Virus record (IMG/VR): IMGVR_UViG_3300046796_000370
Location: 1-64,000 of that record
Origin: a virus
Length of the DNA stretch: 64,000 bases
Strand: one strand, 5' to 3'
This document shows, piece by piece, positions 1 to 23,700 of the stretch (positions within the stretch are counted from its first letter, which is position 1; every line of letters begins with the position of its first letter). A model generated the notes under the pieces. That model was not told the origin of the DNA. It saw nothing but the letters and a program-made list of their open reading frames with translations, and ran no database searches. The position numbers and the translations under genes were made by a program.

Positions 1-1
1 A

Positions 2-205
2 GGGATGAGCAGTGCAGAGAAACAGGTCATCATGAATCCATACTGGCCACCCGGTCGTATCGATGCTGCGGCGCGTGGTTACATGGTAAAGATGTTCTTA
101 GCGGAGTTATGGGACAAGTGGAGGAGGCTAGAAGGTCTAGAGGTAACACCGACTTATCACGAAGCAATTCAAGGCCACCGGCATGGGAGGAACGCAGCAG
201 AATAG
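2..205 (+). CDS. 3' end of a truncated gene, possibly a Tas (Nop-domain) protein
   Basis: An open frame runs in from the window edge and stops with TAG at 203-205. The first visible ATG is at 5, but the frame is open before it, so the true start probably lies upstream. About 66 codons are visible. The segment PGRIDAAARGYMVKMFLAEL followed by WDKWRRLEG reads as amphipathic helices rich in basic and aromatic residues. The first degenerate repeat of the array begins at 201, inside the stop codon. In TIGR-Tas loci the tas gene lies next to the array, and a basic C-terminal helix pair would suit a Nop-type RNA-binding protein, so a Tas C-terminus is the favoured guess. No catalytic motif is visible in this fragment, so the class (Nop only, HNH or RuvC) cannot be told. 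Confidence 0.45.
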   Translation, partial: GMSSAEKQVIMNPYWPPGRIDAAARGYMVKMFLAELWDKWRRLEGLEVTPTYHEAIQGHRHGRNAAE

Positions 206-1470
206 CCAAAGTTGGTTAGAAACCCATAGGAACGAAGCGAGCCATACCGGATGAGCAACCCAGTGAGGCACAGCGAGCCATCAGAGGTTAGAAACCCACA
301 ATCATGCAAGCGAGCCAGAGGTTGGTAGAAACCCCAAGACGGTGAGCGAGCCATCAGGAGTAAGAAATCCAATGGAATTTAGCGAGCCAGAAAACGAGAG
401 GACACCATCATCCTCCAGCGAGCCAGATAAACGTAGCAACCCAACCATGGCCAGCGAGCCAGAATACGAGAGAATACCAAGTTGTCCAGCGAGCCATCGA
501 GGCTAGAAACCCAAGATCACGCAAGCGAGCCATTCGACCGTAGTAATCCAAGAGAGGGAAGCGAGCCATGCTCCTGCAGAAACCCCTATCATAAGAGCGA
601 GCCAAGACATGGATAGAAACCCGTAGGAGGAAAGCGTGCCAAGGAACTCAAGAAACCTAAAGGTGATTAGCGAGCCATCTTGGATCAGTAACCCAAGCAA
701 CGTGAGCGAGCCATAAGTGGTAGGTACCCAGTCGGACAAAGCGAGCCACGTAAATCGAGAAATCCGTGATGCGTCAGCGAGCCATTGAAAGCAAGAAACC
801 CAATCGTCACGAGCGAGCCACTGCGCCAGAGCAACCCAAGCACATTCAGCGAGCCAACCAACCATAGAAACCCAGAGCCAATCAGCGTGCCATCAGTCGC
901 GAGAAACCCAATCATCGACAGCGAGCCATTGCGATCTAGTAACCCAGATCTGATAAGCGAGCCAGTCGACCTTAGAAAACCCATAAACCGCAAGCGCGCC
1001 ACAAATGACCAGAAACCCACGTTGCAGGAGCGTGCCATAGATTGGGTAGAAATCCATAGGAGAAAAGCGAGCCACAATACATAAGGAACCCCAGAACTCG
1101 TAGCGAGCCACGTTGTACAGAAATCCACAAGACTTAGCGGGCCTTCATCATATAGCAACCCAAATCGGCCAAGCGCGCCAAAGAAGATTAGAAACCCACG
1201 ATGCAGCAAGCGAGCCAGAAAAGCACAGAAACCCATTGGGCATCAGCGAGCCATCCGGACGTAGAAACCCACAAGTGATAAGCGAGCCAACGATATCGAG
1301 AAACCCACAACGTTGAAGCGTGCCATGTCTATCCAGTAATCCATAGATGCAGAGCGTGCTATCCACTACTAGGAATCCAATAGGAGCAAGCGAGCCATTC
1401 AAAGCTAGAAATCCAAACCACGGAAGCGTGCCATCCCATCCTAGAAACCCATCACAATAAAGCGAAAGAC
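201..1470 (+). repeat. TIGR-like array: 35 units of about 36 nt with dual short spacers
   Basis: Two conserved 9-nt boxes alternate through the region: AGCGAGCCA and AGAAACCCA. They are separated by non-conserved spacers, mostly 9 nt, range 8-10. The GCGNGCC core of the first box recurs at 237, 273, 310, 346, 382, 418, 454, 489, 525 and so on to 1426: 34 clear copies, with degenerate copies at 201 (AATAGCC) and 1462 (GCGAAAG). Successive copies are 34-37 nt apart, average 36.0. This gives 35 units and 70 spacers. The fourth base of the core varies: A in 25 copies, T in 6, C in 2, G in 1. The second box often drifts (AGCAACCCA, AGTAACCCA, AGAAATCCA). Published TIGR arrays yield 36-nt tigRNAs with two short spacers each, bound by Nop-domain Tas proteins; period and layout agree. 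The strand is assumed from the flanking genes. It is not CRISPR, because the repeats and spacers are far too short. Confidence 0.85.
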
Positions 1471-2885: not shown

Positions 2886-3602
2886 ATGTCTAATCAGATA
2901 GGCAAATACACAATTCACCCGGCACTAGAGATATTTCCTTTGATGAAAGATATGGAATTTTATAAATTGTTGGCTAATATCAAGGAGAATAATATAAACC
3001 ATCCTATTATGATTCGTGATAATATGATTATTGATGGCCGTAGTCGAATGCGAGCTTGTTTGGAAATTAATATGGTGCCGTATGTCATAGAACTTGATTC
3101 TGCACTGGATGAGTTCGATATTATAGAATTAATTTTCAAAAATAATATTAAGCAACGAAATCTTGATGTTGGGCGACGTGCAATGATAATAGCTGAACTT
3201 TGTCAAAAGAATATACAACTTCGTAACAGACTTGCAACATATGCTAATGTTAGCCATGGCACTATGGTGAGAGCTGTAAGATTAATCAGACCAGCACATA
3301 AAAAACTTGCTGTTCTTGTGAGAGAAGAACAAATAACCTTTAATAAGGCGAATGTTCAAGCCTTTCACAATGAACAAAACCATGTTCAGGTTCAAGAAGA
3401 ACCAAAACCTCAAAAGGAACTAACCAAGACCAAAGAACCAAAGGTTTGCGCGGAGTATGTAAAAATACCTCGCAAGGAACTCATTTCTATCATTCGTAAA
3501 CTTGAGGATCTAGGGCTGAAAAATATGGCGACGATATCCATACCGTCGATTACCATAGAAGCCGGTAGACTCAGGAAATTTTACAATGATCAGAAAGAGT
3601 AG
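2886..3602 (+). CDS. ParB-like nuclease-domain protein
   Basis: This 238-residue protein has an N-terminal ParB/sulfiredoxin-type domain. Segments include a strand giving the target preference (residues about 34-48, HPIMIRDNMIIDGRSR), the conserved G-R-S-R turn, and the helix NNIKQRNLDVGRRAMIIAEL typical of ParB-like proteins. A helix-turn-helix-like stretch (about 115-135) follows, then a charged linker (about 165-190) and a short C-terminal domain. Family members bind DNA, and some have nuclease or CTPase activity. The gene is clearly AT-richer than its neighbours, with many AAT, ATT and ATA codons, which suggests separate acquisition. It follows promoter copy 2; no strong SD was seen. Confidence 0.65.
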   Translation: MSNQIGKYTIHPALEIFPLMKDMEFYKLLANIKENNINHPIMIRDNMIIDGRSRMRACLEINMVPYVIELDSALDEFDIIELIFKNNIKQRNLDVGRRAMIIAELCQKNIQLRNRLATYANVSHGTMVRAVRLIRPAHKKLAVLVREEQITFNKANVQAFHNEQNHVQVQEEPKPQKELTKTKEPKVCAEYVKIPRKELISIIRKLEDLGLKNMATISIPSITIEAGRLRKFYNDQKE

Positions 3603-20733: not shown

Positions 20734-23700
20734 TTAAGGAATAGACCCAGACCACCAGCCCTGCCGGGGTGGAGTTACTGGAGGAAGTGGGGGTTGGTAT
20801 GAAGGAGCCTCACTAGACATCCACGGAATATTAGGTGGAGGAACATAGGGTGGTGGGATAACTATATCTGGTGATGGAATGGAGTCTGATATCCAATAGT
20901 CCTTTATAACACCGGCTACACCGGTAGCTGTTATCCATTGATCTTGTTGAGTAACACGCAATGTGCCGATAGCGGTACCATAGACAGCGCCAGCAGCTGA
21001 TAATGTTTGAGAGTACTGATTAACATTTAGAGTACCGCGAATTGAAACTGTGCCGGTTGCTTGTAATGATTGGCTCTCTTGCACAGAACTAAGAATACCA
21101 GAAACAACCACTTTGCCGGTGGATACAATTGTCTGGGTTACTTGGATGCTATTCAATACACCAGAAACAGTTACCTTGCCAACAGATACAAGTGTCTGAT
21201 TTGCTTGTGGGGTACTAAGAGTACTACTGACAATTGGTGATCCAGCAGCAGCAAGTGTCTGTGCTGCTTGCGGAAGATTTAGACTACCGAAACATACGAC
21301 TGGAACTGTACCGGTAGCTGATAATGTTTGTGATGCTTGAAGAAGATTGAGTGTACCACTGATACCAGAAATAACAGAACCACCGGCAGATAGAGTTTGC
21401 GCGGCTTGCGGGGCACTAAGAGTGCCTCGAACAACAGGGCCACCGATTGATACTAGTGTCTGGTTTGCCTGTGGGGCAGAAAGCGTGCCACGGACTTGAA
21501 CTGTACCAGCGGAAACTATCGTTTGATTTGCTTGTAGAGTACTAAGAGCGCCACTGACAACAGGCCCACCAACAGAAACCAATGTCTGGTTAGTCTGTGG
21601 GGCAGAAAGCGTGCCACGAACTAGAACAGTACCAATTGCCACCAGGGTTTGCGATGCCTGCTGGACACTGAGCGTGCCGTTAATCGTAACGACGCCAGCG
21701 GCGACTAAGGTCTGGTTAGCCTGTATGACGGTGAGCCCGCCAGAGATGCCGGTTGTCTCCCCGACACTGCCAGCGGCGGCGAGCGTCTGATCGGCTTGGA
21801 CGATACCCGCTGGCGCAGCGACACCACGGACCTCAATCGTCCTTACTAAAATTGCATTGTTCGAAGCCCAATGCAGATAATTCGAAGCGGTCTTGTCGAC
21901 CGTCGCCGCGTCATCACCGCCTGCGGCCAAGTACCATTGATCATTCCCTACTCGAAACGTGTTTCGTAGATTAACGGAACCGGGGGCGTAATACTGACAA
22001 TGAATATAGTTCTTGGTCTCGTCGTAAGCCTCTGGCAAATCGACCCAGTCCGAAACATAAACCAGCGTCGATCCGTCACTTGTGATATTGCCGCCGCCAA
22101 ACGTGACGTGTGCGGGCGTATTGGCAAAATCTTGCGGATCACCACTTATCGCCTGCTGCCCGAAATAAATCTTGCATGTCTCGCCTGCGCCAAAGACCGC
22201 AAATTCCAGTGTGAGCCGAACCTGTGTGCCAGACCCAGCGGCTAGGTTACCCGCTCCAACTTGGACAACGTGAGTTTCATTACCCCAATTGGTATCGGTC
22301 GCATCGAACGTATTGTTGTAGACCGTCGTCGGAGTGCCACTTGCGCCAACCGTGCCGAGATGACCCTCAACAATAGAGCCGCCAGCCGCCGCAATCGTGT
22401 CGTCGGCCTCAATAAGGTTGAGCGTGCCGGTGATGGTGCCCGGAGCGCCGCTGATGGATGAGCCATCCCATCGCGTATAGCCAGAGCCAGGGGGAGTTCC
22501 TAAAAATGTCCCATCAAAATTAAAAGTGGCAGCATTAGAATTATCATACAGAGATACTCCTAAGCAGGCATCGGTGGTATCAAACCCACTAGCTGATAAT
22601 GAGCTGGACCACGCACCTCCTTGAGTAATATTTCGAATTTGAAAAATTGGCCCAGTTCGATCAAGTGCAAATGCAAGCCAATCTCCTTGAGTAAAACTTG
22701 AAACCGTGGCACCGGACGTCCCACTGTGATAGATATTACCACCACCATTCCAACCGTATGAAGTTGCAGAAGACCCTACATATGCAGTTAAAGATTCACC
22801 AGTCGTGCCTATTCCTATAAGATGAATTACGGTACTAAAATAATCAATATGAACCTCTGCATAAACTTTAGTTGCTCCTCTAGTTGATTGAGAATAAGTA
22901 GTTGCATATCCTGAGCCACTAATTTTTGTTGCGGTTAAGTTACTATTTGAGAGTGCAACACTAGCTGGGCAATAGAAAAGAATTGTACCAGCAGCAGCGC
23001 CGTTCGTTCCCGTCGCGGCCAGGGTGTCGTCAATCTCGGTCCTGGCGAGCGTGCCGCGAACAACTGGTCCACCCGCCGCTGAAAGGGTCTGCACGGCTTG
23101 CGGGAGAATCAGATCGCCATCAACAATAGAGTTACCGGCTGCTGAAAGTGTTTGCGCAGCTTGAGGTAGAATAAGATCACCATCAACTATCGGTGACCAG
23201 TTCGTCGTAGTAATACTACTTCCAACTCGGAAGAAAGCATTATCTGAGTTGCTTGATCCTGCAGTAGTCTGTTCTTGCCACTCCAGCTGGAAGAATAAAT
23301 ATTCATTAGCAAGAGTTATAGCAGGAGCCGCCCAACTGATACCAGAATTAGTATTAACAGTTGTTGATATTGTTTGTGAAGTACCAAAAATTTCACCAGA
23401 TGTTAGTTCACGTGCGCCAGTACCACTGACATTGGTACTCGCCCAGACCCGCATTCCCAAGCGGCCGACCATACCGGCCGTGCTACCACGCAAGTTCCAA
23501 ACGAATGTCCAAGTACCAGAAGCAAAAGTTCCATAATAAGTAGACGAAGTACTGAAACAATCACCGGCAGTGGTGCCTGTTGCTCCAGTACCTGCTGTTG
23601 GACCTGTTGCTCCACTAATATATGATGTGGTTGCCGTAGTGCCAGATGTACCAGAAGCACCAAGCCTCGAACGACAATAACTGCTAATCGCCAATTTGCC

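What the first reader, a model, noticed from the sequence alone, without database searches (positions are those of the whole stretch)
201..1470. A 35-unit TIGR-like dual-spacer guide array in a phage genome
Seen: two 9-nt boxes alternate with 8-10-nt variable spacers, giving a mean period of 36.0 nt over 35 units and 70 spacers, with degenerate boxes at both ends. Known: TIGR-Tas systems use arrays with about 36-nt units that are processed to tigRNAs with two short spacers and bound by Nop-domain Tas proteins; they occur in phages. Inference: this is such an array and an RNA-guided system is encoded at or just left of this locus. The box sequences show no clear C/D motifs, so the repeat type may be a new variant.
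Basis: partly seen in the sequence, partly recalled or inferred. Interest (0 to 1): 0.95.

Follow-up and report, generated by a model that had tools for sequence, protein, structure and literature searches.

The report
Phage TIGR-Tas guide-RNA system, 49 guides
A bacterial virus carries a recently described RNA-guided DNA-binding system, with one effector gene and three arrays encoding 49 dual-spacer guide RNAs; it is an unusually large but clear member of the TIGR-Tas family published in 2025, and its targets remain unknown.

Summary
In detail: window 204-1464 holds 35 units of edge repeat AGCGAGCCA, 9-nt spacer A, loop repeat AGAAACCCA, 9-nt spacer B, mean period 36.03 nt. The effector gene lies across the start and end of the circular 77.8-kb virus contig. 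It encodes 333 aa, its stop codon overlaps the array's first half-repeat, and it is intact on another contig (L002). NCBIfam names it TIGR_Tas_endo (E=5e-32, above the curated cut-off). Its nearest solved structures, by sequence profile and by predicted fold, are TasR and TasH. The edge repeat is identical to the core of the edge repeat of Salicola phage CGphi29, whose 36-nt tigRNAs were shown experimentally. Two further arrays of 4 and 10 units lie in the same genome, giving 49 guides for one effector. The effector has no nuclease domain, so it is TasA-type. The same repeat pair occurs in about 90 stretches of viral DNA, mostly in records that also hold a tas gene. Natural targets could not be found: all searches gave chance-level matches. 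New member of a known kind.

The parts
204..1464 (+). TIGR array 1: 35 units (edge AGCG|AGCCA, 9-nt spacer A, loop AGAAACCCA, 9-nt spacer B). Starts with half-edge AGCCA 204-208, ends with half-edge AGCG 1461-1464.
1..205 (+). 3' end of the tasA gene (333 aa in all). Its 5' part is at the other end of the circular contig, G000:C1:77036 onward (L001:13036). Stop codon TAG 203-205 overlaps the first half-edge repeat.
   Evidence: intact copy L002:5001-6002
218..226 (+). first loop repeat AGAAACCCA (of 35)
236..244 (+). first complete edge repeat AGCGAGCCA (of 34)
2886..3602 (+). ParB-like protein gene 1.4 kb downstream of the array on the same strand; ParB-like genes are reported near some tasA genes, but membership of this operon is not shown
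   Evidence: TIGR00180 E=3e-7, below cut-off; phrog_4715 E=0.0019; not conserved near tas in relatives

Best explanation
This is a phage-encoded TIGR-TasA system. One 333-aa Nop-type effector without a nuclease domain is encoded between a 4-unit array (G000:C1:76875-77022) and the 35-unit array (window 204-1464). A third array of 10 units lies 4.2 kb upstream (G000:C1:72468-72829). The arrays are most likely transcribed with tas on the + strand and cut in the middle of each edge repeat (AGCG|AGCCA). That would give 36-nt tigRNAs of the form 5'-AGCCA-[A]-AGAAACCCA-[B]-AGCG-3'. A TasA dimer would bind one tigRNA through the symmetric AG (box D) and CCA (box C) motifs. [quoted passage not shown] Lacking a nuclease, TasA would act by occupying or bending DNA (blocking transcription or replication, or assisting recombination) at up to 49 sites, probably in the host or in competing mobile elements. 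Shown here: the array anatomy, the tas gene, its family and predicted fold, and the absence of a recognisable nuclease. Inferred from the characterised homologues: transcription, processing, dual-strand targeting. Speculative: the biological role and the targets. The confidence given is for the identification as a TIGR-TasA system; for action by DNA binding without cutting it would be about 0.6.
For: Array anatomy and truncated edge ends. Tas gene: NCBIfam TIGR_Tas_endo 111.6 bits, cut-off 100. Sequence match to TasR 9mty E=2.5e-6 singly and 3.2e-31 by profile; TasH 7.6e-22 by profile. AlphaFold model pLDDT 86, whose best Foldseek matches are TasR and TasH, then IS621 and ISCro4. Residues 1-176 of the model contain no beta-strand, so neither a RuvC nor an HNH fold is seen. 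SpTIGR has edge AAGCGAGCCA. Cultured Microcystis phage Mvi-JY20 has a tasA homologue followed by an array with ATGCGAGCCA/ACGAAACCCA repeats and a terminator. The repeat pair alone retrieved 90 viral stretches; of 37 such records, 29 carry tas. In 34 tas loci every array parsed with this consensus is on the tas strand. Mechanism of homologues: PMC12045711.
Against: Pfam Nop PF01798 does not match in this genome, nor does any other Pfam model match this protein, so the Nop relationship rests on TasR/TasH homology and fold. No terminator was predicted on the + strand directly after array 1, although TIGR arrays typically end in one. No targets were found. No RNA or protein expression data exist.
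Confidence: 0.94

Rival explanations
1. The array is a CRISPR or CRISPR-like array with another effector.
For: Regular short repeats with variable spacers in a phage genome.
Against: Two different 9-nt repeats alternate with 9-nt spacers; a CRISPR array has one longer repeat and longer spacers. The adjacent gene is Tas, and no Rfam family matches in the window.
Confidence: 0.01
2. The region encodes a repetitive protein.
For: 36 nt is 12 codons, and long antisense ORFs (183 aa) run through part of the array.
Against: Spacer lengths of 8-10 nt shift the repeats among all three frames. Each of the six frames has 6-24 stops. Spacers are unconstrained while the repeats are nearly fixed.
Confidence: 0.01
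3. An IS110-type transposase remnant with bridge-RNA-like repeats.
For: phrog_4285 'transposase' and weak Transposase_20 hits in 20 of 24 relatives; IS621 and ISCro4 are the next structural matches.
Against: No recombinase domain is seen. Matches to TasR/TasH are far stronger than to IS621 (3e-31 against 0.26). Bridge RNAs are single units, not 36-nt arrays (PMC12045711).
Confidence: 0.03
4. A real TIGR-Tas locus, but decayed and non-functional.
For: Some loop repeats are degenerate (e.g. AGGACACCA, AGAATACCA) and no terminator was found after the array.
Against: tas is intact over 333 codons on another contig, and the array is identical in both records. Edges are near-invariant over 34 copies, as expected under selection.
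Confidence: 0.04

Closest known systems
SpTIGR-TasH of Salicola phage CGphi29 (NC_020844; PMC12045711)
   Same: Edge repeat core AGCGAGCCA identical; both repeats AG...CCA; 36-nt unit; array downstream of tas in a tailed phage.
   Different: SpTasH carries an HNH nuclease, which the window protein lacks. SpTIGR has 10-nt repeats and 8-nt spacers (9 and 9 here) and about 11 units (35+4+10 here). Loop AAGACAACCA against AGAAACCCA.
TIGR-TasA systems, e.g. Flavonifractor plautii FpTIGR (PMC12045711)
   Same: Solo Nop-domain effector without nuclease; 9-nt spacers; 36-nt tigRNAs reported for FpTIGR.
   Different: The paper gives 5-15 units as most usual; here 49 in three arrays. The FpTIGR sequence itself was not compared here.
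TasA-like locus of cultured Microcystis phage Mvi-JY20 (PP438412)
   Same: tasA homologue followed directly by an array with edge ATGCGAGCCA and loop ACGAAACCCA.
   Different: Effector 241 aa and about 25% identical; 8-nt spacers; clear rho-independent terminator. The record does not annotate it as TIGR-Tas.
IS110-family transposases (IS621) with bridge RNA
   Same: Distantly related RNA-binding fold.
   Different: Recombinase domain and single bridge RNA; no arrays.

Membership tests
TIGR-Tas | Array of two alternating 8-12-nt repeats with short (about 9-nt) spacers, units about 36 nt | tested here: met
TIGR-Tas | Adjacent gene for a Nop-domain Tas protein | tested here: met
   NF052498 above cut-off; TasR/TasH profile and fold matches. 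Pfam PF01798 itself did not match.
TIGR-Tas | Box D and box C motifs shared between edge and loop repeats | tested here: met
   AG...CCA in both repeats; near-invariant; same in SpTIGR
[quoted passage not shown]
   AGCCA ... AGCG in arrays 1 and 3; array 2 begins with a full edge and ends with AGCG
TIGR-Tas | Rho-independent terminator after the array (typical feature, not universal) | tested here: not met
   none on the + strand after array 1; a gene follows at 1477. Described in PMC12045711 as typical, so not treated as defining.
TIGR-Tas | Processing into 36-nt tigRNAs bound by Tas | not testable with these tools
   needs small-RNA sequencing; the predicted product is 36 nt
TIGR-Tas | tigRNA-guided dual-strand DNA recognition | not testable with these tools
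   needs biochemistry; in-silico target search gave chance-level results
TasA subtype | No nuclease domain (neither RuvC nor HNH) | tested here: met
   no Pfam hit; model has no beta-strand in residues 1-176; single-sequence match to TasR limited to residues 137-222 of its 331
tasParB operon subtype | parB-like gene in an operon with tasA | tested here: inconclusive
   ParB-like gene at 2886-3602, separated from the array by two genes; not conserved in relatives
CRISPR-Cas | Single longer repeat with longer spacers, and cas genes | tested here: not met
   dual 9-nt repeats and a Tas gene

The most novel reading that the evidence does not exclude
TIGR arrays in phages are adaptive guide libraries renewed unit by unit: spacer A and spacer B are inherited together, order is kept, and related phages carry largely different units. 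The 49-guide TasA system here would then be a large, evolving, nuclease-free RNA-guided repressor aimed at hosts or rivals. In one group of related phages, 39 of 165 distinct units are shared between distinct arrays, with adjacent shared pairs in the same order 46 times and in opposite order 5 times. The acquisition mechanism and the targets are unknown.
Probability: 0.2. Interest if true: 0.8.

Novelty: new member of a known kind. Interest (0 to 1): 0.45.

Why it matters
TIGR-Tas was described in 2025, and its targets, its biological role and the way its arrays grow are open questions. This genome offers one effector with 49 guides. A public set of about 90 stretches with the same repeat pair, together with a cultured Microcystis phage that has a related locus, would let the target and array-growth questions be tested.

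Tried and rejected
Self-targeting: no unit of arrays 1 and 2 (39 units) matches its own genome with 0-1 mismatches in any geometry. Targeting of other TIGR-bearing phages: a first 1.1 Mb gave 40 units matching in the published geometry (A followed by rc(B)), against 27.5 +/- 5 for shuffled pairing. After removing redundant DNA this was 27 vs 21.6 +/- 4.4, and in 2.19 Mb of new DNA 79 vs 65.4 +/- 7.2 with up to 80 in shuffles, so it is not established. Target of the duplicated array-3 unit: 16 exact hits among 257 Gb of genomes, eight in Bradyrhizobium. The eight are one orthologous gene, so there are about eight independent hits, close to the roughly 7.5 expected by chance for an 18-mer; one viral hit. 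Targets of three conserved units of another phage group: 0, 3 and 2 viral hits, chance level. Close relatives of Tas in bacterial genomes: none with the single-sequence patterns. Plasmids: none. The antisense 183-aa ORF with matches in 123 loci is only a translation of the repeats.

Full report
Observation. A parse of the window confirms 35 units between 204 and 1464. The array runs half-edge AGCCA, then repeated [spacer A, loop AGAAACCCA, spacer B, edge AGCGAGCCA], and ends with the half-edge AGCG. Mean period is 36.03 nt. Exact edge and loop boxes are found nowhere else in the window; 25 and 12 copies compare with 0.36 and 0.57 expected. The repeats shift among all three frames and stops occur in every frame, so it is not a coding repeat.

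The gene at the left. The window is bases 1-64000 of a 77,961-bp virus record. Its two ends share 126 identical bases, so the contig is circular (about 77.8 kb) and was cut inside a gene. Joined across the cut, the gene encodes 333 aa and stops at window 205, with the stop codon overlapping the first half-edge repeat. A second IMG/VR contig (L002) carries the gene intact, with an identical array.

More arrays. The same repeats form a 4-unit array directly upstream of tas (G000:C1:76875-77022) and a 10-unit array 4.2 kb further upstream (72468-72829), which contains a duplicated unit. The total is 49 predicted guides.

Family. NCBIfam calls the protein TIGR_Tas_endo (111.6 bits, cut-off 100). 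A profile of 24 viral relatives finds TasR (9mty, E=3e-31) and TasH (E=8e-22) among solved structures, and IS621 only at 0.26. The AlphaFold model (pLDDT 86, pTM 0.80) matches TasR and TasH first, then IS110-family recombinases. The N-terminal part is helical with no RuvC or HNH domain, so it is TasA-type. The NCBIfam word 'endonuclease' should not be taken literally here. Pfam Nop itself is not matched.

Repeats compared with known ones. In Salicola phage CGphi29, whose tigRNAs were sequenced (PMC12045711), the edge repeat is AAGCGAGCCA and the loop AAGACAACCA. The edge here is identical over its nine bases. Both repeats here start AG and end CCA, the positions of box D and box C as defined in that paper; edge position 5, at the predicted cut, is free to vary. 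The cultured Microcystis phage Mvi-JY20 has a related locus annotated only as a hypothetical protein.

Distribution. The repeat pair alone retrieves 90 stretches of viral DNA. Of 37 records found that way, 29 contain a tas gene. In 34 tas loci all arrays parsed with this consensus are on the tas strand, many starting 7-40 nt after the tas stop. Neighbouring genes are not conserved, so tas and its arrays appear to travel as a cassette (inference). Array 1 is among the longest found (median about 7 units).

Array evolution. In one group of related phages, arrays share whole units in conserved order but most units differ. Many homologous units differ by one to three substitutions. This points to fast whole-unit turnover with A and B inherited together, consistent with a joint A+B target. 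No acquisition machinery was identified.

Targets. With the published geometry (8-nt 3' overhangs in TasR, which implies A followed by the reverse complement of B on one strand) no target could be established in the virus itself, in 2.85 Mb of non-redundant TIGR-bearing viral DNA, or in the collection scans. Guides of 18 nt match by chance in collections of this size, so these scans have little power without knowing the host.

Verdict. An ordinary-in-kind but large and complete TIGR-TasA system in an uncultivated tailed phage. What it binds and why is unknown.

Noticed in passing
G000:C1:72468-72829 (L001:8468-8829): Third TIGR array with an internal duplication of one whole unit and the following spacer A (AAATCTACA...AACTGCGCT...GCGTATCGC), suggesting growth by recombination.
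   Followed up: partly
L005:3794-4880 (Microcystis phage Mvi-JY20, PP438412): A cultured cyanophage carries a TasA homologue and TIGR array annotated only as hypothetical protein, close to the terminase gene.
   Followed up: partly
L024-L049, L072, L074, L121: Related phages share TIGR units in mosaic, collinear fashion: a data set for studying array turnover.
   Followed up: partly
Mycobacterium phage records, e.g. MG944221, NC_024368: 76 Mycobacterium phage records hold distant Tas homologues, often annotated as transposase or DNA-binding protein; whether they have arrays was not checked.
   Followed up: no
L001:6771-8321: Two secreted-looking proteins with C-terminal VPGPVVGAGIPG...RRR tails resembling PEP-CTERM sorting signals, unusual in a phage; a homologue of one lies near tas in L097. 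NCBIfam gave no hit.
   Followed up: partly
window 2886-3602: ParB-like gene downstream of the array; ParB-like genes are reported in operons with some tasA genes.
   Followed up: partly
L057 (467 aa), L058/L059 (426-429 aa), L061/L063 tas genes: Larger Tas relatives with N-terminal extensions, some possibly TasH-like, beside arrays with similar repeats.
   Followed up: no
window 21458-21635: 63-nt repeat (2.8 copies) within a 1028-aa reverse-strand gene, likely a protein repeat.
   Followed up: no
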